The notes under the pieces were generated by a model. It made no database searches. It worked only from the letters and a program-made list of their open reading frames with translations, and had not been told where the DNA came from. The position numbers were made by a program, and so were the translations under genes. Positions 1 through 10,785 of a DNA stretch of 41,150 nucleotides are shown in pieces (within the stretch, counting starts at the first letter, position 1; each line of letters begins with the position of its first letter). Source of the stretch: Halonatronum saccharophilum DSM 13868 (GTDB taxonomy: Bacteria; Bacillota; Halanaerobiia; Halobacteroidales; Halobacteroidaceae). The DNA lies in the NCBI RefSeq assembly GCF_000517025.1, contig NZ_KI912091.1, forward strand, positions 328,635 to 369,784, given 5' to 3'.

Positions 1-908
1 TTTAAGTTCTCATTACTCCCTCTTTGCCAAGAAGAGTAAGCATCAGCATAATATTGCTTTGTCCTTGGAATTTTACTTCTTGTAAAAGAAGTCTCTATTC
101 CTGTATAGTTATAAAATTCTTTCCCATTATCAGTTGTAATAGTCTTGAACAATTCTCTAAACTTCTTTACTCCTATTCTTCTTTCTATTCGATCCAGACC
201 TCTTATTACAGCTTCCTGCGTCTTATTAGGTATAATCTCTATTATTTCTTTTCTACTATACCTCTCCGTTAGAACTAATAAGAAAGGCTCTCCTTTTCCC
301 TTTCTACCCTCTACTAGATCCATTTCCCAATGACCTACTTCTAACCTCTCATCAGCTGCTTTAGGCCTATCTGATATTCTTCTACCTTCTTTACGTCTTT
401 TAGTTGATTCTTTTCTTTCTTCTTTGTCTTTTAGACTTTTATAATTACCATAGGTCAACTCTTCTCTACTTACAAATAGGATGCCTTTATCTATATAATT
501 ATAGATAGTCTTCCAATGTAATTCTATTTCAAAATCTTCACTATTTTTTATCATATCTGCAATTACTTCTGGAGAATACTTATCTTTGATTTTTTCCTCT
601 ATAAACTCAGCTAACCTGTGATCTTTACCTATTTTTATTTTAGCTCCTTTAGCTGTAGCATTTTGATCATATACCTTTTGAGCCTTTAATGCATCATATT
701 CTATTCTAATTGTATAGTCCCAATTTAATAGCTCTATTTTGCCTTTTTTAACCTCTCTGCTTATTGTAGTTCTATGTCTACCTAACTCTTGTGCAATCTC
801 TTTGGGAGACTTGTTTTGTTGATTATACAAGTGTTCTATTACTTTTCTATCTTCCCATTTTAAGTGTTCACCTTTGTTCTCATTTGTGTTATAATTATCT
901 TGGCACAT
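1..908 (-). CDS. IS30-family transposase (partial, C-terminus off the left edge)
   Basis: This frame is open for 302 codons from an ATG at 908-906 to the edge. The N-terminus has an IS30-type helix-turn-helix (SPKEIAQELGRHRTTISREV), which binds the element ends. The catalytic RNase-H-like domain follows: HWEMDLVEG supplies the first Asp (about residue 197), TTDNGKEF the second (about 260), and QRGSNEN the Glu (about 300), just inside the edge. This DDE set catalyses cut-and-paste or circle-type transposition. A GAGG ribosome site precedes the ATG. No frameshift or internal stop was seen, so the gene may be functional. Only the last part, normally 10-40 residues, is missing. Confidence 0.9.
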   Translation of the reverse strand, partial: MCQDNYNTNENKGEHLKWEDRKVIEHLYNQQNKSPKEIAQELGRHRTTISREVKKGKIELLNWDYTIRIEYDALKAQKVYDQNATAKGAKIKIGKDHRLAEFIEEKIKDKYSPEVIADMIKNSEDFEIELHWKTIYNYIDKGILFVSREELTYGNYKSLKDKEERKESTKRRKEGRRISDRPKAADERLEVGHWEMDLVEGRKGKGEPFLLVLTERYSRKEIIEIIPNKTQEAVIRGLDRIERRIGVKKFRELFKTITTDNGKEFYNYTGIETSFTRSKIPRTKQYYADAYSSWQRGSNENL

Positions 909-1511: not shown

Positions 1512-2363
1512 ATGTTTAGACAGAGGATTTTACCTTTGCTTTTAATCTTATTTTGGGTAACTAGTATAGTCAAGGCTGATGTTGGAAGTAGCATCTTTGC
1601 AGAGAAGGATAATGGAGTCTATGATTGGGAAAAGTCAGTTGTTCAAGCTACAGGTTTTGGTATTTCACCTTCTTTTATAAATAATTCATCTCAAGGAAGG
1701 ATTATGGCAAGAGAAGCTGCAATAACAACAGCTCAAAGAAGGCTGTTAGAGTTGATTGATGGTGTGCAGATTGATTCAAAGCAAACTGTAAAGAATGTTC
1801 AAATAGAGTCTGATGTTATTGAAAAAAGAGTTTCTGGCTTATTACAAGGGGCTAGGATAATTGAAGAAGAGTCAATAGACGATAAGACATATATGGTAGT
1901 AATGGAATTAGAGTTTTATGGTAATGGAGGAGTTATAGAAGCTATATTTCCAGCTATAGAGGATAGTAGAAGATCTACTAAAGATAGCATCTGGATTGAT
2001 AGAAATGATGGCTTTGGAGAAGAAGAGGGAGAGTATACTAGTATTATTATAAAGGCACCCTCTGATCTTAGTCCAGCGTTAGCTCCTAAAATATATAATT
2101 CTAGTGGAGATTTGATATATGGGGTAAGTACTATTGATATTGATGATGTTATTACAGATGGTTTGGTATCATATAGTAGGAGTTTAGCAGATGCTAGAAA
2201 TAATTCAAGAGCTGGCAATAATCCTTTAATAATTGATGCACAAGGAGTTAAGGGTGATTATAGCACTGATATAGTAATCTCTAATCGTGATGCTAGATCT
2301 ATTAAATCTGCTGGAATACGTGGGGTCTTCAGTGATCGTAGGGTAATAGTTGTTCTCAATTAA
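1512..2363 (+). CDS. Exported LPP20-family protein
   Basis: The 283-residue protein has a signal peptide (about 1-22, basic start then LPLLLILF, probable cut after KA). Unlike its neighbour it has no lipobox Cys. The LPP20/FlgT-N-type domain spans about 43-150, with the family's AREAAITTAQRRLLELIDG helix and the following QIDSKQTV and SGLLQGARI segments. A second conserved block, SDLSPALAPKIY, near 185 is also typical of LPP20 lipoproteins. The family includes Helicobacter LPP20 and the N-domain of Vibrio FlgT and is generally envelope-associated; its biochemical role is unknown. The ATG at 1512 follows AAGGGGTGA. The next gene is 13 bases downstream, and its C-terminal two thirds is a paralogue of this protein. 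Confidence 0.75.
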   Translation: MFRQRILPLLLILFWVTSIVKADVGSSIFAEKDNGVYDWEKSVVQATGFGISPSFINNSSQGRIMAREAAITTAQRRLLELIDGVQIDSKQTVKNVQIESDVIEKRVSGLLQGARIIEEESIDDKTYMVVMELEFYGNGGVIEAIFPAIEDSRRSTKDSIWIDRNDGFGEEEGEYTSIIIKAPSDLSPALAPKIYNSSGDLIYGVSTIDIDDVITDGLVSYSRSLADARNNSRAGNNPLIIDAQGVKGDYSTDIVISNRDARSIKSAGIRGVFSDRRVIVVLN

Positions 2364-2376
2364 GGAGGAGGTTTTC

Positions 2377-3567
2377 TTGAAGAAACTTACTATTGTATTA
2401 ATAATGTTATTATTATTAACTGGTTGTAGAGGAGAAGAGTTTATGACTCTACGAGGGAGAGTTATAGATGATATGACTGGGGAAGGTTTGGCAGGAGTTA
2501 GGGTGGAGATTGGTGATATCGATTTAAAGACAAATACTTCAGGTTTCTTTATTTTAGAGGATATACCTGTAGTTGAAGAGGTACCTTTAGAGGATAGATT
2601 CGTTAAGGTAGGTGTTTCTGGTTATAATACCTTTGTTCAAGAGTTGATTCTAGAAAAAGGGGATAAGAGCTTAGAGATAAGGTTAAGTCCTTATTCTACT
2701 AAAGAAGAATCTAATGATAAAGTAGATGAAGGTAACTTGAAAGAGCAAGACTTAAGAGGTGGAATTAAATTACCAGAAGATATTAATGATGGGTGGTCTA
2801 AAGATACTAATATTGTAGAGGAGAGGGATGAAGGTCTTTATGACTGGGAAAGATCAATTATTCAAGCCACTGGTTTTGGAATCTCACCTTCCTTTACTAA
2901 AAATAAAACTCAAGCTAGGATTATGGCTAGAGAAGCTGCAATAACAGCAGCTCAAAGAAGGTTAATTGAATTAATTGATGGTGTACAGATAGATTCTAAA
3001 CAGACTGTCCGCAATGCTCAGATTGAATCAGATATTATTGAGAGAAGAATTTCGGGACTGCTCAAAGGTGCACGGATAGTTGAAGAGAAGGAATTAGATG
3101 AGGATAGTTATATGGTAGTTATGGAAGTTCATCTTTATGGTAAAGAGGGTGTTATAGAGGCTGTACTACCAATACTAGAAGGGGATGGCAAGAGTAGTAG
3201 ACCTATTGATAATAAAGAACCTAATGTTAAAGTTAATTATACTGGGGTTATTATCAATGGGACTTCTGATCTTAAACCAGCTTTGGCCCCTAATATATAT
3301 AGCTCAAGGGGAGAATTGATCTATGGGATGGATACTATTAATGTAGATGGAGTTGTTATAGATGGATTAGTATCTTATAGTAGAAGTTTAGCAGATGCAA
3401 AGAATAATTCTAGGGTTGGCAATAACCCTTTAATTATCGATACAAAAGGTAGCCGAGGAGATTATAATACCGATTTAATAGTATCTAATAATGATGCTAA
3501 AGTAATGAAAGCTTTAGAAAGAGAAGGTATTTTAAGTGAACGTAGAGTTATCATTGTTCTTAATTAA
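2377..3567 (+). CDS. Lipoprotein: carboxypeptidase-regulatory-like domain fused to an LPP20 domain
   Basis: The chosen start is TTG 2377, which sits 6 bases after GGAGGAGG and gives a clean lipoprotein signal ending LLTGC (Cys17); an earlier in-frame TTG at 2350 would overlap the previous gene and lie upstream of the ribosome site. The 396-residue product has, after the lipidation Cys, a beta-sandwich of the carboxypeptidase regulatory-like type (about 22-100, TLRGRVIDDMTGEGLAGVRV), an acidic linker, then an LPP20 region (about 150-396) closely related to the preceding gene. The residue after Cys is Arg, not Asp, which by the E. coli Lol rule would favour the outer membrane; that rule may not apply here. 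No catalytic motif is visible, so a structural or binding role is most likely. Confidence 0.75.
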   Translation: MKKLTIVLIMLLLLTGCRGEEFMTLRGRVIDDMTGEGLAGVRVEIGDIDLKTNTSGFFILEDIPVVEEVPLEDRFVKVGVSGYNTFVQELILEKGDKSLEIRLSPYSTKEESNDKVDEGNLKEQDLRGGIKLPEDINDGWSKDTNIVEERDEGLYDWERSIIQATGFGISPSFTKNKTQARIMAREAAITAAQRRLIELIDGVQIDSKQTVRNAQIESDIIERRISGLLKGARIVEEKELDEDSYMVVMEVHLYGKEGVIEAVLPILEGDGKSSRPIDNKEPNVKVNYTGVIINGTSDLKPALAPNIYSSRGELIYGMDTINVDGVVIDGLVSYSRSLADAKNNSRVGNNPLIIDTKGSRGDYNTDLIVSNNDAKVMKALEREGILSERRVIIVLN

Positions 3568-3579
3568 GGAGGGGTATAA

Positions 3580-4701
3580 TTGAAGAATAGGCTGATACTT
3601 ATATCAATAGTTATCACCTTATTATTGTTAACTGGTTGTAGAGGAGAAGAGTTTATGACTCTACGAGGAAGAGTTATAGATGATATAACTGGGGAAGGGT
3701 TGGCAGGAGTTGGGGTAGAGATTGGTGATATCGATTTAAAGACAAACTCATCAGGTGGTTTTATCTTAGAAGATATACCGGTAGTTGAAGATATTCCCTT
3801 AAAGGAGAGGCTAATCAAAGTCGGGGTTCCAGGTTATAGAACTTTTGTTGAAGAGCTGATCTTAGAAGAAGGTGATAAGAATATAGATATAAGGCTTAGA
3901 CCTAGTAGGGTTAGGAATTTTTTCTTTGTTAGTGATAAGGATGGATCAAAGAGTATTTATTTAGGAGATATATATGGCGGAGAAAGAACTAAATTGACTG
4001 ATAGCAATAGTAATGATTGGTCTCCTGCTTGGTCAGAAAAAAGAGGAGAGATTTTGTTTTTATCAGATAGGGATGGCAATAGCAACATATATACAATGAA
4101 GGAAGATGGTTCGAATTTGAGGCAGATTACCTCTAATAAAGGGGATAAAGAAAGTCCTATTTGGTTAAGTGATGACAAGATAGCTTTTGTAGCCAATTTT
4201 GAAGGAGAATTTCATATCTATTCGATGAATTTAAATGGAGATAATCTATTAAGGTTAACTAACAATAATCATTACGATGGTCAAATAGATTACTCTGATA
4301 TAAGAGGTAGTATAGTTTATATTTCTCAAACTACAGGAGAAGATAAGGTTCACTTAATGGATAAGAGTGGGAGAGGAAAGATCTTGTTAAGTCAATCCTT
4401 TGGTAATGACAGTGATCCTAGTTGGTCAAAGGATGGAGGAGAATTTGTATTTGTTACTTCAACTAGTGAGAGTTCAGGAATATATAAGATGAACTATAAT
4501 GGCAGTGGATTAAGAAATCTATTAGAGTCAAAAGATGAAAGTTATCAGTATCCAGTTTGGAATGCAGAATTAAATACCTTAATATATGTAAGTAAGAAGG
4601 ATGGTACTAAGGATATAAATTTATTAACTCCTAAAGGTGAAATTAGAGGTATATTAGTAGATGAAGATATTAATTACAGTAAGCCAATTTGGAAAGATTA
4701 G
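3580..4701 (+). CDS. Lipoprotein: carboxypeptidase-regulatory-like domain plus TolB-like six-bladed propeller
   Basis: The TTG start at 3580 follows AAGGAGGGG. The lipobox LLTGC places the lipidated Cys at residue 20. Residues about 25-107 repeat, almost base for base, the N-terminal domain of the gene before. From about 113 to the end there are six PD40-type repeats, each with an (F/I)xFVSxxDG strand, an IYxM strand and a turn before the next WS motif (for example LFLSDRDGNSNIYTM), as in TolB. A six-bladed propeller on a lipid anchor suggests protein-protein binding at the periplasmic face of a membrane. It is not TolB itself: the TolB N-domain is absent and no tol-pal genes are adjacent. 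Confidence 0.75.
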   Translation: MKNRLILISIVITLLLLTGCRGEEFMTLRGRVIDDITGEGLAGVGVEIGDIDLKTNSSGGFILEDIPVVEDIPLKERLIKVGVPGYRTFVEELILEEGDKNIDIRLRPSRVRNFFFVSDKDGSKSIYLGDIYGGERTKLTDSNSNDWSPAWSEKRGEILFLSDRDGNSNIYTMKEDGSNLRQITSNKGDKESPIWLSDDKIAFVANFEGEFHIYSMNLNGDNLLRLTNNNHYDGQIDYSDIRGSIVYISQTTGEDKVHLMDKSGRGKILLSQSFGNDSDPSWSKDGGEFVFVTSTSESSGIYKMNYNGSGLRNLLESKDESYQYPVWNAELNTLIYVSKKDGTKDINLLTPKGEIRGILVDEDINYSKPIWKD

Positions 4702-4719
4702 AGAAGGGGTGTTGATACT

Positions 4720-6255
4720 GTGAGAGACCTTTCTAGAATTATAGCTATGGTTTTATTGGTATTTATTTTTGTTAGTTTTGTAGGGGTAGATTGTGCGTTG
4801 GCCCAAGAAATATATAACTTATCAGGGCAATTTAATGGTGATAATGACTCTCAAACAATTAGAAATTTAGGTGTAAGTGCTCTTATCTTCTTAGGGGTCT
4901 GGGGGATTTATCGAAGGTCTAGAAGTAAGCGTAAGGCAGAGTACAGGTCTAACTTAGAGCAGGGTCAATACTTTTTAGAAAGAGGAGATTATAGGCTAGC
5001 AATTTATAGGTTTGAAGCAGCAAGGAAGATCAAAGATACTAATGAAGCGTTAAGGCTCTTAGATGAAGCAAGAGATAAATATCAAAAGTCACGCCAAAAA
5101 ATAGAGGATCAGAGGTTTAAAGATATTAATAATGAAGGTGAGAGCGAAGACTTATCATCTAATAAGCCAATAGAGAGTGGAGATTCAAAGGTAGTTGAAG
5201 TTAAAGGTATATCTTATATTGCGGGTAGGGATATAGCTAGAGCTAAAAGTTTAGCTATAAATGATGGCTTACGTAGAGGTGTAGAGAAAGTAGTAGGCCT
5301 TCATATAAATGCCCAAACTAAAGTTGAGAATTATGAGTTGATTAGTGATAGTATCTTAAGAAGTAGTGAAGGGTATGTGAAGAATTATCAGATAGTTGAT
5401 GAGTATAATGATGGAGATAATTATTATGTTTATTTGAGAGTTGAGGTTGGGGTAGGTGAGTTAGAAGATGATCTTGAAGCATTAAAGTTAAATATTAAAC
5501 GTCAAGGAAATCCTAGGTTAATGGTAGTTGCATCTCAAAGGGCCAACTTCACTAACCTTTCTAATTCTATCATTGAAAATGAATTTATTAAAATCCTTTT
5601 AGAGTCAGGTTATCAAGTAGTTGATTCCACTGAAGTAAAGAATGTAGTTAAAAAGGAGCAAGAAGAGGCAATGGTTAGAGGTGATTATCAACTAGCATCT
5701 CAATTAGGAAAGCAACTTAATGCTGAGGTTGTTCTAATAGCAGATGGTGTTGCTAGTAAGGTTGATCTAAGAGGAATTAATAATAATAGTTTATCTGGAC
5801 TTGTATCTTATAGTGGCCAAGTTGAAGTAAGGGCTATCGATACGTCTAACGCAAGAGTTATTGGGGTTAGTACTGGTAGAGGAGAGGGAATAGGAATTAG
5901 CAGACAGGATGCTGCTAGTAAAGCTTTATTAGCTGCAAGCAAGGATAGTGGAGAAGAGATTGTTAGTAGCATAAGTAATGTTATATTAAGTTCTGAGAAG
6001 AATATTAGGTTGCAGATAAGAGAAGTAGAATCGTTGGCCCAATTAGGAACTATCAGAAGAGAACTTCCTTCTATTTCTCAACTCGATAATGTTTATTTTA
6101 GAGAATATAGTAATAATTTAGCGATATTTGATTTAGAATTGATGAGTGGCTCTGATCCTCTAGATTTTGCTTTGGATTTAGAAGATCTTCTACCATTTAA
6201 ATTTAAAGTAGTTAGTTTAAGTGATGGAAAGTTGATTTTAGAGCTTATAGAGTAA
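4720..6255 (+). CDS. Membrane-anchored TPR protein with FlgT/LPP20-like domain
   Basis: This 511-residue protein starts at GTG 4720 after AGAAGGGG. A signal peptide (1-29, ending ALA) is followed by a short exported linker, a membrane span about 49-64 ending GVWGIYRR, and a basic stretch. Then come TPR-like helices (about 80-125: GQYFLERGDYRLAIYRFEAA), a FlgT-N/LPP20-type domain (about 158-250: GISYIAGRDIARAKSLAIN, then DNYYVYLRVEV), and a C-terminal region opening with NPRLMVVASQ that resembles the FlgT middle domain. FlgT proteins work at the cell surface, but no flagellar gene is near, so a flagellar role is not supported. Its first 120 residues are paralogous to those of the next gene. 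Confidence 0.65.
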   Translation: MRDLSRIIAMVLLVFIFVSFVGVDCALAQEIYNLSGQFNGDNDSQTIRNLGVSALIFLGVWGIYRRSRSKRKAEYRSNLEQGQYFLERGDYRLAIYRFEAARKIKDTNEALRLLDEARDKYQKSRQKIEDQRFKDINNEGESEDLSSNKPIESGDSKVVEVKGISYIAGRDIARAKSLAINDGLRRGVEKVVGLHINAQTKVENYELISDSILRSSEGYVKNYQIVDEYNDGDNYYVYLRVEVGVGELEDDLEALKLNIKRQGNPRLMVVASQRANFTNLSNSIIENEFIKILLESGYQVVDSTEVKNVVKKEQEEAMVRGDYQLASQLGKQLNAEVVLIADGVASKVDLRGINNNSLSGLVSYSGQVEVRAIDTSNARVIGVSTGRGEGIGISRQDAASKALLAASKDSGEEIVSSISNVILSSEKNIRLQIREVESLAQLGTIRRELPSISQLDNVYFREYSNNLAIFDLELMSGSDPLDFALDLEDLLPFKFKVVSLSDGKLILELIE

Positions 6256-6304
6256 CTTAAATCAGTTTAATTATTATATAAAATTAATAAAGAGGGTGAT
6301 TGTT

Positions 6305-7378
6305 TTGTTAAGCAGGTATTCTAAGTTTATTTCGATGATATTATTGGTCTTTATATTTATTAGTTTTGTAGGGGCTGATTATGTGTTGGCCCAGGAACTA
6401 TACAGCTCATCTAACCAAGATAGTGATTCTAATATATCTAAAGGCTTAGGGATAGGTGCTTTAATAACTTTAGGTGTTTGGGGGATATATCGTAGAGTAA
6501 GAAGTAGTCGTGAAGCGAGGTATGAATCGAATTTAGAGAGGGGACAATACTTTTTAGATAGAGGGAATTATCAATTGGCTATTAATTATCTAGAAGAGGC
6601 TAGAGCTATAAATGATACAACAGAGGTATTAAGCCTTTTACATGAAGCCCAAGATAAGTACAAAGATTATCATTATAGCCAAGGCATAAAATATTTAGAA
6701 GAAGAAAATTGGGAACTAGCTTATAGATATTTTAATAATGTAAGAAGATATGATCAAAATTATCTAAATGTTAATCATAATTATGATCAAGCTTATCAAA
6801 AGTTAAGAGAAATTAAGTTAAAGAGGATGGCAGTTATAGAGTTTGAAGATACAACTTATCGTACATACCGTTATAACTTAGGAAGAAGAGCTACTAGTTT
6901 ATTTACAGCTAAATTATTAAGCAGAGACCCTAAGTTTATTGAGGTAATTGAACGAGCTCGACTTAATCAGATTTTAGAAGAACAGAAGTTAGGGGCGAGC
7001 GGATTAGTTGATTCCTCTACTGCTAAAGATATAGGTAATATATTGGGAGTTGACTTTTTGGTAGTTGGGAAGGTTTTAAGTGGTAGTGTAACAGAAGACA
7101 GGAATTCACAAAAGGTAGATGTTAGATATCAAGATGATCCAGTAACAAGAACTAATGTACAAAAGGAAGCATATACTCAAATTATCTTTAATATTCTTGA
7201 TGTTTCTAATGGAGCAATAGTCTTAAGTGAGACTATTAGAGAAAGAGAGAACTTTAGAACATCCTATTATCAAGGAGAATCAGTTTCAATTCCTTCTGAT
7301 GAAGAGATGATTGATGATGTATTAACTAAAGCAGTTGATAGGTTTGCCCAAATAGTTTATGATAGGTATGAATTTTAA
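6305..7378 (+). CDS. Membrane-anchored TPR protein with CsgG-family domain
   Basis: TTG 6305 is taken as the start because AGAGGG lies 8 bases upstream; the GTG at 6296 would lie inside that ribosome site. The 357-residue product repeats the design of the previous gene: signal peptide ending VLA, a span ending GVWGIYRR, and TPR helices (about 75-155). The C-terminal half (about 178-357: MAVIEFEDTTYR, VIERARLNQILEEQKLGASGLVD, GNILGVDFLVVGKVL) is a CsgG/HfaB domain. CsgG forms the curli secretion pore in diderm outer membranes, but many CsgG-like proteins without the lipidated N-terminus and long barrel hairpins are of unknown function, as here. It closes the five-gene block. Confidence 0.75.
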   Translation: MLSRYSKFISMILLVFIFISFVGADYVLAQELYSSSNQDSDSNISKGLGIGALITLGVWGIYRRVRSSREARYESNLERGQYFLDRGNYQLAINYLEEARAINDTTEVLSLLHEAQDKYKDYHYSQGIKYLEEENWELAYRYFNNVRRYDQNYLNVNHNYDQAYQKLREIKLKRMAVIEFEDTTYRTYRYNLGRRATSLFTAKLLSRDPKFIEVIERARLNQILEEQKLGASGLVDSSTAKDIGNILGVDFLVVGKVLSGSVTEDRNSQKVDVRYQDDPVTRTNVQKEAYTQIIFNILDVSNGAIVLSETIRERENFRTSYYQGESVSIPSDEEMIDDVLTKAVDRFAQIVYDRYEF

Positions 7379-7575: not shown

Positions 7576-7809
7576 GTGATTAAGTTATATCAATTTGAGA
7601 CCTGTCCATTTTGCAAAAAAGTTAGGGATAAGCTTGAAAGTATGGGTTTAGATTATGAAAAGGTTGAAGTACCAAGGGATAGGGGAAAGAGGACTGATAT
7701 TAAAGAGCTATCTGGTCAGATCAAGGTTCCCGTCATCCAAGATAGTGATGGCACAGTAGTAAATGATTCAGCTAAGATTATAGAATATTTAGAAGAAAAT
7801 TACAGCTGA
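7576..7809 (+). CDS. Glutaredoxin-like thiol-disulfide protein
   Basis: A 77-residue thioredoxin-fold protein with a dithiol active site CPFC (Cys10, Cys13) after the first strand, the cis-Pro motif KVPVIQD near residue 51, and a C-terminal helix NDSAKIIEYLEENY that fits glutaredoxins and glutathione-transferase N-domains. It would reduce or exchange disulfides in the cytoplasm; the actual reductant is unknown. GTG 7576 is preceded by AAAGGAGGAG. It stands alone between 197 upstream non-coding bases and its own terminator. Confidence 0.85.
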   Translation: MIKLYQFETCPFCKKVRDKLESMGLDYEKVEVPRDRGKRTDIKELSGQIKVPVIQDSDGTVVNDSAKIIEYLEENYS

Positions 7810-7819
7810 TAAATTACCT

Positions 7820-7866
7820 AGCTTTCTAATATAGAGTTAATTAATCCTATATTAGGAGGCTTTTTA
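7820..7866 (+). terminator. Rho-independent terminator after the glutaredoxin gene
   Basis: A stem formed by CTAATATAG and CTATATTAG, extended by weaker GC/GU pairs outward, ends in a run of five T residues. It lies 11 bases after the stop codon. Confidence 0.75.
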
Positions 7867-7950
7867 AATGCAAAGATAACTTTTTTGATTTAATAGGGAA
7901 GATAGATTATAATACTTTATAAGAGATTATTTTAGTTGAGGTGGGGTTAG

Positions 7951-8673
7951 ATGGTTAAAACAATATTATGGTTTTCTTATTTTTGGATATATCAGATTAG
8001 ACTTTTGCCGATATTCTTTAAACTTAAGTACCTTATGAAAAATAATAAAGAAGATGAAGTAAAGGGCTTGGTTAATAAATGGGTACCAAAATGGGCCAAA
8101 GAAATGGTAGAATTTACAGGTAGCAAGGTGAAAGTTATAGGGGAAGATAAGTTGCCCGATGAACCTGTTCTCTTTGTTTCTAATCATCAAGGTTCTTTTG
8201 ATATCCCTCTTTTGCTAGGTTACATAGATAAGCCTAAGGCCTTTATTGCTAAATGGGAATTAAGGTATTTACCTTTTATTGGGAGTTGGATGAAGGAGTT
8301 AGGTTGTATATTTATTAAAAGAAATGATTTTCGTCAAACTCTTAAGGCTTTTAAAGGAGCTGGGAGAGTCTTTGAAAAGGGCCAATCACTGGTCATATTT
8401 CCTGAAGGAACCCGAAGTAGATCAAGTAAATTGGGTAAATTTAAACGGGGAAGCTTAAAGATTGCTCTTAGAGAGAAGGTTCCTGTAGTCCCTGTGACTA
8501 TTAAAGGTTCTTATAAATTAAAAGAAAGAAATAATGGTTTTATCAAAGGAGATAATGTAGAGCTAGTTATTTCAGATCCTATTTACATTGATAGTTTAAG
8601 TAAAGAGGAGAAAGATGATTTAACTTTAATAGTTAGAGAAGAGATAAGTAAAGAATTAATAGGTGAAAGTTAA
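7951..8673 (+). CDS. plsC: 1-acyl-sn-glycerol-3-phosphate acyltransferase
   Basis: The enzyme adds the second acyl chain to lysophosphatidic acid, giving phosphatidic acid for membrane lipids. The 240-residue protein has all the family blocks in order: NHQGSFD (the catalytic HX4D, about residues 77-83), the KRND segment near 126, FPEGTRSR (about 150-157, substrate phosphate binding) and VPVVPVTIKGS. A hydrophobic, weakly basic N-terminus probably anchors it to the inner face of the membrane. The ATG follows GAGGTGGGG. Its neighbours do not suggest a special acceptor. Confidence 0.9.
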   Translation: MVKTILWFSYFWIYQIRLLPIFFKLKYLMKNNKEDEVKGLVNKWVPKWAKEMVEFTGSKVKVIGEDKLPDEPVLFVSNHQGSFDIPLLLGYIDKPKAFIAKWELRYLPFIGSWMKELGCIFIKRNDFRQTLKAFKGAGRVFEKGQSLVIFPEGTRSRSSKLGKFKRGSLKIALREKVPVVPVTIKGSYKLKERNNGFIKGDNVELVISDPIYIDSLSKEEKDDLTLIVREEISKELIGES

Positions 8674-8731
8674 TTTAAATTTAAAATGTAAAGGTAATAA
8701 TTAGTGATAAATTTGAAGGAGGAGATTAGTT

Positions 8732-9661
8732 TTGGCTGGCTGGTTAATACAAAATAATAAAACAGAAACAAATTTATTAAAAGTTTCAATATATAGTGCT
8801 TTATTTTTTTCTATAACATCTTTTCTTTTAGGTATAATATTAAACTCTCAATTATTAGTTTTTGATGGTTTATATTCTTTGATTTCTGTTTTTTTATCAT
8901 ATCTTTCTTTAGTAGCTATTAAATTTATAAAAAAGACTGATTATGAATTATTTCCTTTTGGTAAATCAGTTATTGAGCCTTTGGTTATAATTATTAAATA
9001 TTTTTTAATAATATTATTAGTAATAAGTTCTTTGGTTACTGCTATTATGTCAATATTAGAAGGTGGTCGGGATGTAGTTTTAGGTCCTGCTTTAATCTAT
9101 ACTATATTTGGTGTAATAGGTTGCTTTGTAACTTATAAGTATTTATATGGTGGTGGTAAAAGTTTAAATTCCAACATTGTTATTTCTGAAGCCAATCAAT
9201 GGTATATGGATACTTTAGTTAGTTTAGGAGTATTAGTAGGTTTTTTTATAGCTGTTATTTCTCAACTTATAGATCAACTTAATCCTATAATACCCTATAT
9301 AGATCCAATAATGGTAATTTTATTCTCAGTATATTTTATAAAGATTCCAATTGAAGAGATTATTTCTTCTATTAAGGAGTTATTACAAATGGCTCCTGAT
9401 GATGATTTGAGAACTAAAGTTGAAAAAGAGGTGTTAAAATTAAAAGAAGAATATAATATAGATAATGTTTTTATTAGAGTAACTAAGGTTGGAAGAACAC
9501 TTAAAATTGATGTTGATTTTATAGTAGGAAAGGATTCTTATATTAGATCAATTACTGATCAAGATGAAATAAGAGGTCAACTTTATAAAAAACTAAAGAA
9601 AAATCAGTTGGAGCTGTGGATGGATATTGCTTTTACTCAAGATGAAAAATGGGCTATTTAA
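8732..9661 (+). CDS. Cation diffusion facilitator (CDF) family transporter, divergent
   Basis: The TTG start at 8732 follows AAGGAGGAG by 7 bases. The 309-residue protein has about five to six hydrophobic spans through residue 210, then a soluble C-domain (about 225-309) with the alpha-beta pattern of CDF cytoplasmic domains. Landmarks are FDGLYSLIS in span 2 and EANQWYMDTLVSLGV in span 5. Classical zinc CDFs carry HxxxD or DxxxD metal sites in these spans; here span 2 keeps only the first Asp and span 5 keeps its distal Asp, so the metal is uncertain and transport of another cation, or loss of transport, is possible. Export from the cytoplasm is the family role. Confidence 0.75.
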   Translation: MAGWLIQNNKTETNLLKVSIYSALFFSITSFLLGIILNSQLLVFDGLYSLISVFLSYLSLVAIKFIKKTDYELFPFGKSVIEPLVIIIKYFLIILLVISSLVTAIMSILEGGRDVVLGPALIYTIFGVIGCFVTYKYLYGGGKSLNSNIVISEANQWYMDTLVSLGVLVGFFIAVISQLIDQLNPIIPYIDPIMVILFSVYFIKIPIEEIISSIKELLQMAPDDDLRTKVEKEVLKLKEEYNIDNVFIRVTKVGRTLKIDVDFIVGKDSYIRSITDQDEIRGQLYKKLKKNQLELWMDIAFTQDEKWAI

Positions 9662-9723
9662 TTTGATAAAGCAAGAGTTTTTTATTAATTAATCTGATCT
9701 AAATTCTCTAGGTGGGTGTGCTT

Positions 9724-10785
9724 ATGGAGCTTAGTATAATACATATAGATATGGATGCTTTTTATGCTTCTGTTGAAGTTAGAGAGAACCCTGCTTTAAG
9801 AGGAAAGCCTGTTATTATTGGTGGTAAGAGCAGAAGGGGAGTAGTAAGTACGGCCTCTTATGAGGCTAGATGCTATGGTGTAGGGTCCGCAATGCCCATA
9901 GCAAAAGCTAGAAAGTTATGTCCTAATGGGGTTTATTTAAAGCCTAGGCATTCTCTTTATAAAGAGGTTTCTAATAATATAAGAGAGATTTTTTATCGTT
10001 ATACAGACTTAGTTGAACCCTTATCCCTAGATGAAGCTTATCTAGATGTAAAGCAAAATCCTAAAAATAGTATTAGAATAGCTAAAGAAATTAAAAGGGA
10101 GATAGAGAATAATCTAGGGCTGACTGCTTCGGTAGGTATTAGTTATAATAAATTCTTAGCTAAGCTTGCTTCAGATTTTAATAAACCTAATGGTTTCAAG
10201 ATAATCTCACCTTATGATTTTGAAGAACTTATTCTTCCTTTAGATGTTAAATTTCTCTGGGGTGTTGGCCCTAAAACAGAGGGTAAGTTAAAGGAAATTG
10301 GTTTATATAAAATAAAGGATATTGCTCAAGCTGATAGAATAGTGCTGATAGATAAGTTAGGCAAAAAGGGTTATCAGATTTGGAAGTTGGCCCAAGGAGA
10401 GGATAATAGGGAAGTAACTCCTCCAAGCCGACCTAAATCTATTGGAAAAGAGACAACTTTTAAAAAAGATATTGGTGATAAAGTTCTTTTAATCGATTAT
10501 TTAAAAGAGCTATGTAGTGAAGTTAGTCAAAGAGCAGTTAGCAATAATATTAAAGGAAGAAGTATTTCTTTGAAGTTAAAGTATAGTGATTTTGAAGAGT
10601 TTTCAAAAAGTCAAAGTTGTGAGTATTATTTTAATAAAGAAGAAAAAATATATAAGCTAGCTTTGAGTATTTTAAAAGAGATAAATTTAAGAAAAAAAGT
10701 TCGATTAATAGGAATAACTTTATTCAATATGAGGGATAATAGTATTAAGCAATTATGTTTATCTTTTAAAAAAACTAAAAAATAA
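9724..10785 (+). CDS. dinB: DNA polymerase IV (Y-family translesion polymerase)
   Basis: The protein starts with the Y-family signature IIHIDMDAFYASVE, whose Asp residues bind catalytic Mg, followed by the SYEARCYGV segment and SLDEAYLD with the acidic catalytic pair. A helix-hairpin-helix region (FLWGVGPKTEGKLKEIG) and the C-terminal little-finger domain follow. At 353 residues it is full length. ATG 9724 is preferred over the in-frame GTG 9712 because the ribosome site AGGTGGG lies between them. It copies past DNA lesions with low fidelity. The C-terminus ends in basic residues without an evident sliding-clamp motif. Two GTTGGCCC octamers fall inside the gene. Confidence 0.93.
   Translation: MELSIIHIDMDAFYASVEVRENPALRGKPVIIGGKSRRGVVSTASYEARCYGVGSAMPIAKARKLCPNGVYLKPRHSLYKEVSNNIREIFYRYTDLVEPLSLDEAYLDVKQNPKNSIRIAKEIKREIENNLGLTASVGISYNKFLAKLASDFNKPNGFKIISPYDFEELILPLDVKFLWGVGPKTEGKLKEIGLYKIKDIAQADRIVLIDKLGKKGYQIWKLAQGEDNREVTPPSRPKSIGKETTFKKDIGDKVLLIDYLKELCSEVSQRAVSNNIKGRSISLKLKYSDFEEFSKSQSCEYYFNKEEKIYKLALSILKEINLRKKVRLIGITLFNMRDNSIKQLCLSFKKTKK

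What the first reader, a model, noticed from the sequence alone, without database searches (positions are those of the whole stretch)
1512..7378. Five-gene exported-protein locus built by domain shuffling
LPP20 domain, carboxypeptidase-regulatory-like domain, six-bladed propeller, TPR/span module, FlgT-like and CsgG domains are combined in five adjacent genes: gene 2 is the N-domain of gene 3 joined to gene 1, and genes 4 and 5 share their first 120 residues with different C-terminal modules. CsgG, LPP20 and TolB-like parts together suggest an undescribed outer-membrane-facing complex in a diderm Firmicute.
Basis: partly seen in the sequence, partly recalled or inferred. Interest (0 to 1): 0.68.

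Follow-up and report, generated by a model that had tools for sequence, protein, structure and literature searches.

The report
Shuffled outer-membrane ring-protein gene cluster
Five adjacent genes in a two-membraned Firmicute make exported proteins built from modules related to proteins that form rings under the outer membrane around some flagella; the core set is shared by many outer-membrane-bearing Firmicutes, including ones without flagella, and here two of the genes are fusions made from parts of their neighbours.

Summary
In detail: five co-directional genes at 1512-7378 carry the stated domains, and the claimed duplications are real (61-62% identity, E to 1e-113). Relatives show how it arose. 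In the same family the genes are unfused (FlgT/LipL46-like, LPP20, in some a short CsgG, CPD-reg+TolB, TPR-CsgG). In the window's genome gene 2 is the N-domain of gene 3 joined to a copy of gene 1, and gene 4 is the N-module of gene 5 replacing the signal peptide of the FlgT-like protein.

The FlgT-like/LPP20 pair is conserved, usually adjacent, in six families of OM-bearing Firmicutes. In a 299-genome sample all 28 LPP20 carriers have Omp85 (76 of 299 do; P about 3e-19). The LPP20 part is homologous to Campylobacter FlgP, the basal-disk ring protein (E 1e-24), with the ring-forming insert ungapped; its second domain is Tp0624 D2 (E 3e-14). Three carriers lack flagellar genes, and flagella are not enriched in carriers, so an obligatory flagellar role is disfavoured.

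Most likely: a periplasmic, outer-membrane-linked ring or scaffold complex. The topology of genes 4 and 5 is unresolved, and no function is shown. The parts are known families; their combination was not found described in the papers held.

The parts
1512..2363 (+). g1: exported protein; signal peptide, LPP20/FlgP-like domain (about 1641-1916), Tp0624-D2-like domain (about 2034-2360)
   Evidence: profile matches to C. jejuni FlgP 9hmf_C (E 1.3e-24) and Tp0624 5jir (E 2.9e-14)
2377..3567 (+). g2: lipoprotein (lipobox LTGC, Cys at 2425-2427), CPD-reg domain (about 2446-2661), linker of about 40 aa, then full copy of mature g1 (about 2806-3564)
   Evidence: g1/g2 61% identity; g2N/g3N 62%
3580..4701 (+). 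g3: lipoprotein (Cys20 at 3637-3639), CPD-reg domain (about 3658-3897), six-repeat TolB-like propeller (about 3913-4698)
4720..6255 (+). g4: chimera; residues 1-122 = N-module of g5 (signal peptide, 15-residue hydrophobic core about 4867-4911, TPR), then FlgT_N (about 5191-5448), CsgG/TolB-N-like middle (about 5503-6015, by inspection) and C-terminal domain; the only full-length FlgT-like gene found in the genome
6305..7378 (+). g5: signal peptide, hydrophobic segment followed by basic residues, TPR (about 6533-6616), CsgG/LpoB-like domain (about 6824-7246)
   Evidence: orthologs in all seven other same-family genomes
1..908 (-). IS30-like transposase (HTH_38 + rve), runs off the left end of the window; lies on the side where relatives have the lipoprotein and DUF5723 barrel
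   Evidence: L025:16530-17543; synteny
7577..10785 (+). 3' flank: glutaredoxin-like, acyltransferase, cation efflux, DNA polymerase IV; not part of the system, but glutaredoxin/acyltransferase/polymerase IV also follow g5 orthologs in relatives

Best explanation
The locus encodes a periplasmic, outer-membrane-linked structural complex of diderm Firmicutes, built on FlgP-type SHS2/LPP20 subunits. g1 (soluble) and g2 (lipid-anchored) would oligomerise through the FlgP-type beta-hairpin into rings or sheets at the inner leaflet of the outer membrane. The FlgT/LipL46-like part of g4 and the CsgG-like part of g5 would assemble on or through this scaffold, with the TPR module as docking arm; g3 would be a lipid-anchored propeller partner. 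Shown: domain content, homology, conserved clustering, correlation with an outer membrane, lack of dependence on flagella, origin of g2 and g4 by fusion within the operon. Inferred: oligomerisation, membrane placement, mutual contacts. In this genome tandem amplification of the ancestral operon followed by deletions probably made the fusions, because the surviving pieces keep the order of an unrolled array (LPP20; TolB-N+LPP20; TolB; g5-N+FlgT; g5).
For: LPP20 domain of the g1 family matches C. jejuni FlgP (E 1.3e-24) and Vibrio FlgP (1e-7), ungapped across the hairpin that PMC12222027 links to ring formation. All 28 carriers among 299 genomes have Omp85, against 48 of 271 non-carriers (P 2.7e-19). 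Full-length FlgT-like occurs in 19 of 28 carriers and 0 of 48 OM-bearing non-carriers (P 1.8e-11), within 8 kb of the LPP20 gene in 14 of 19, over six families. Signal peptides and lipoboxes. FlgO- and FlgT_C-like modules occur in CsgG-type members of the same clusters. Paralogue trees put g2N with g3N (99/98), g4N with g5N (88/88) and g1 beside g2 (open fork).
Against: No structure could be modelled (mean pLDDT 41 and 30). g5 and g4 carry a conserved second hydrophobic core followed by basic residues, which would put TPR/CsgG in the cytoplasm. Nothing shows physical contact. Many OM-bearing Firmicutes lack the set, so it is not needed for an outer membrane as such. Carriers in the sample are related, so the P values overstate independence.
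Confidence: 0.45

Rival explanations
1. Flagellar accessory ring: the set is the Firmicute counterpart of Vibrio FlgO/FlgP/FlgT or the Campylobacter basal disk and sits around the L ring.
For: Homology of g1 to FlgP and of g4 to FlgT_N; this genome has FlhA and FlgH; FlgO domain in an f26 cluster member.
Against: G257 (one contig, 99% complete) has two FlgT/LPP20/CsgG groups but neither FlhA nor FlgH; G154 and G233 likewise lack both and carry LPP20 and FlgT-like genes. Flagella are not enriched in carriers (24/28 against 38/48, P 0.55). On shared contigs FlgH lies more than 50 kb from the cluster.
Confidence: 0.2
2. Export or surface system serving the DUF5723 barrel and large lipoprotein, or the neighbouring polysaccharide genes, with CsgG-like parts as a conduit.
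For: In same-family genomes a DUF5723 barrel and a 650-700 aa lipoprotein stand next to the cluster, beside polysaccharide-type genes. The CsgG family includes the curli secretion channel.
Against: Association looked at and seen only in this family, and lost in the window's genome, where the barrel is on another contig. The window's genome has no CsgG match beside g5. Whether the CsgG-like domains have the membrane-spanning hairpins of curli CsgG was not tested.
Confidence: 0.15
3. Peptidoglycan-synthesis regulators: TPR and LpoB-like domains act on penicillin-binding proteins.
For: g5 exceeds the Pfam LpoB cut-off (24.2 against 22.3 bits); LpoB hits in several cluster members.
Against: CsgG scores far better on the same stretch of g5; LpoB and CsgG have related folds (own knowledge); no PBP gene noticed next to the cluster.
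Confidence: 0.1
4. The fusions g2 and g4 are rearrangement debris without own function; only the unfused genes matter.
For: Fused form seen in one genome only; IS30-like transposase upstream.
Against: Reading frames intact with joins near domain borders, dN well below dS between copies (0.24/1.0, 0.18/0.6, 0.29/1.6), and g4 is the sole full-length FlgT-like gene found in the genome.
Confidence: 0.08

Closest known systems
Campylobacter jejuni FlgP (basal disk; PDB 9HMF)
   Same: SHS2/LPP20 domain of g1/g2, ungapped through the ring-forming insert, E 1.3e-24 with the family profile
   Different: g1 has a second, Tp0624-D2-like domain; family members occur in genomes without flagella and away from flagellar genes
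Vibrio FlgO/FlgP/FlgT
   Same: FlgT_N in g4, FlgP-like g1, FlgO or FlgT_C domains in relatives' CsgG-type members, all in one cluster
   Different: FlgT_M and FlgT_C not detected in g4; extra TPR, CPD-reg and TolB modules; not tied to flagella
Treponema pallidum Tp0624 (5JIR)
   Same: D2-like domain at the C-terminus of g1/g2 (E 2.9e-14); nearly 50 D1-D2 proteins without OmpA were already noted in 2016 (PMC5104382)
   Different: No OmpA-like D3; that D1 corresponds to the LPP20 part rests on position and described fold only
Leptospira LipL46
   Same: g4 residues 155-342 match the NCBIfam model (1e-12)
   Different: 47 bits against a cut-off of 400, so not an equivalog
CsgG (curli) / LpoB
   Same: g5 C-terminal domain above both Pfam cut-offs
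   Different: Signal peptide, hydrophobic segment and TPR in front, no lipobox, no curli genes noticed
TolB
   Same: g3 has a TolB-type propeller (1e-39)
   Different: Lipoprotein with a CPD-reg domain in front of the propeller; below the equivalog cut-off

Membership tests
FlgP/LPP20 (g1, g2) | SHS2-like domain similar in sequence to FlgP | tested here: met
   E 1.3e-24 to 9hmf_C, 1.1e-7 to Vibrio FlgP; the Pfam LPP20 model itself is below cut-off for g1/g2
FlgP/LPP20 (g1, g2) | Insert between helix and second strand linked to ring formation | tested here: met
   Ungapped alignment over that stretch; sequence level only, model too poor
FlgP/LPP20 (g1, g2) | Lipoprotein | tested here: inconclusive
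   g2 has a lipobox, g1 does not
Flagellar accessory ring (FlgOPT/basal disk) | Occurs only in flagellated genomes | tested here: not met
   G257, G154, G233 lack FlhA and FlgH
Vibrio-type FlgT (g4) | FlgT_N domain | tested here: met
   29.1-32.5 bits against 28.8
Vibrio-type FlgT (g4) | FlgT_M and FlgT_C domains | tested here: inconclusive
   Not detected in any of 20 members; CsgG/FlgO/LpoB hits in a few members
CsgG (g5) | CsgG domain above curated cut-off | tested here: met
   53.3 bits against 20.8
Curli secretion system | CsgA/B/E/F partners and lipoprotein CsgG | tested here: inconclusive
   g5 lacks a lipobox; partners only looked for by eye among neighbours
Tp0624 D1-D2 | D2 domain | tested here: met
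   E 2.9e-14 over 122 residues
TolB (g3) | Equivalog score | tested here: not met
   136.8 against 343 bits

The most novel reading that the evidence does not exclude
OM-bearing Firmicutes keep a flagellum-independent FlgO/FlgP/FlgT-like outer-membrane ring machine, from which or alongside which the flagellar basal disk and H/T rings were recruited.
Probability: 0.17. Interest if true: 0.75.

Novelty: new variant of a known kind. Interest (0 to 1): 0.48.

Why it matters
FlgP, FlgO and FlgT are known as flagellar accessories. A conserved cluster of their relatives that tracks the outer membrane rather than the flagellum would point to a more general envelope role for ring-forming SHS2 proteins and give diderm Firmicutes, whose envelope is central to the diderm-monoderm debate, a testable new envelope component. 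The chimera g4 is also a natural test of the topology of g5.

Tried and rejected
VIA-align on g4 spoke only to its last 78 residues: an arrangement shared with GspL and PilO periplasmic domains, Z at most 7.4, taken as a common arrangement. The genome-contig scan with g5 found one distant locus only. Viral contigs gave no relatives. Promoter and terminator scans were uninformative against shuffles. No paper in the library held FlgT, LPP20 and CsgG together, and none of the ten diderm-Firmicute papers listed mentions LPP20 or FlgT; absence there is not proof of novelty. The A7 search of 48 non-carriers returned nothing, but that run held no positive genome.

Full report
What is there. Five co-directional genes with small gaps lie at 1512-7378. 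g1 is exported and has an LPP20-type domain followed by a second conserved domain. g2 is a lipoprotein with a carboxypeptidase-regulatory-like (CPD-reg) domain joined to a full copy of mature g1. g3 is a lipoprotein with the same N-domain and a TolB-like propeller of six repeats. g4 and g5 share about 120 N-terminal residues (signal peptide, hydrophobic segment, TPR); g4 continues with FlgT_N and a LipL46-like part, g5 with a CsgG domain. The claimed duplications are real: 61% over 258 aa, 62% over 142 aa and 61-62% over about 118 aa.

How it arose. Same-family genomes show the unfused state. In G010 and G012 the order is FlgT/LipL46-like, LPP20, short CsgG, CPD-reg+TolB, TPR-CsgG. In G011 the same order holds except that no short CsgG was detected in the gap; in G006 the short CsgG-type gene is on another contig and the TPR-CsgG gene is doubled; in G007 the TPR-CsgG gene stands before the FlgT-like gene. 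In G008 and G009 the TPR-CsgG gene keeps its place while a more distant FlgT/LPP20/CsgG group lies elsewhere. The relatives' FlgT-like proteins have an ordinary signal peptide. In the window's genome PF03783 rings only in g5, so no separate short CsgG is left, and g4 is the only full-length FlgT-like gene. g2N joins g3N (99/98) and g4N joins g5N (88/88) in trees, while g1 and g2 sit at one open fork; with the identities this makes the events lineage-specific. The pieces keep the order of an unrolled tandem array, which suggests amplification and deletion; this is inference. dS values (0.6, 1.0, 1.6) are large and do not prove one event. The upstream partners of relatives, a DUF5723 barrel and a large lipoprotein, are on another contig here, and an IS30-like transposase lies upstream of g1. 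CPD-reg domains are doubled in G006, G011 and G012.

How widespread. Profiles of the g1 family ring in 28 of 299 phylum genomes. All 28 have Omp85; 76 of 299 pass the Omp85 cut-off (P 2.7e-19). FlgT-like matches over most of the profile occur in 19 of the 28 and in none of 48 OM-bearing non-carriers, which give only partial CsgG-region hits (P 1.8e-11). In 14 of the 19 they lie within 8 kb of the LPP20 gene, in six families (f1, f3, f13, f26, f35, f54); in four f35 genomes they are unlinked and in one the contig ends. Phylogenetic relatedness is not corrected for.

What the modules are. The LPP20 part matches C. jejuni FlgP, chain C of 9HMF (E 1.3e-24); [quoted passage not shown]). That paper ties ring formation in the family to an insert between the helix and the second strand; the g1 family aligns through it without gaps, also in the non-flagellated carriers. 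The C-terminal domain of g1 matches Tp0624 D2 (E 2.9e-14), and D1-D2 without OmpA was reported in nearly 50 other proteins (PMC5104382). In f60 genomes the matches cover only D2 with a different N-part. Members of relatives' clusters add FlgO and FlgT_C.

Flagella. This genome has FlhA and FlgH. But G257, a single-contig genome at 99% completeness, has neither and keeps two FlgT/LPP20/CsgG groups; G154 and G233 also lack both. Flagella are not enriched among OM-bearing carriers (24/28 against 38/48, P 0.55). The cluster lies more than 50 kb from FlgH in the genomes where both share a contig. A strictly flagellar role is therefore unlikely; a role at the flagellum in some species remains open.

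Topology. All g5 relatives examined keep a second hydrophobic core of 15-22 residues after the signal peptide, mostly followed by net positive charge. Read plainly this puts TPR and CsgG in the cytoplasm. Against this, in g4 the same N-module replaces the signal peptide of an otherwise exported protein, and g4 is the only copy. Either the segment does not stop transfer (its hydropathy is low here, 1.3, against up to 2.3 elsewhere) or the FlgT part changed sides. This is unresolved.

Most likely reading. An outer-membrane-linked periplasmic ring or scaffold of FlgP-type subunits with FlgT- and CsgG-like partners, remodelled here by fusion within the operon. Domain content, homology, clustering and the outer-membrane correlation are shown; oligomerisation, contacts and placement are inferred. 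Function in the cell is not shown.

Noticed in passing
window 1-908 (L025:16530-17543): IS30-like transposase immediately upstream of the cluster, on the side where synteny with relatives breaks.
   Followed up: partly
L027, L028, L032: The carboxypeptidase-regulatory-like domain of the g3 ortholog is tandemly doubled; G006 (L032) also has two adjacent g5-like genes.
   Followed up: partly
L026:15319-18656, L031:11013-14349, L094:9144-12347: Conserved pair of a DUF5723 outer-membrane barrel and a 650-700 aa lipoprotein without Pfam match, next to the cluster in relatives but on another contig in the window's genome.
   Followed up: partly
L088:9389-10165: Tp0624-D2-like domain with an N-part that does not match LPP20 (f60), although the 2016 Tp0624 paper found D1 and D2 only together.
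   Followed up: no
L025:7567-11984: LolA-like protein, weak DUF1302 barrel and MMPL transporter in a row about 6 kb upstream of the cluster.
   Followed up: no
L079 and L080 (G257): A genome without FlhA and FlgH carries two separate FlgT/LPP20/CsgG groups.
   Followed up: partly
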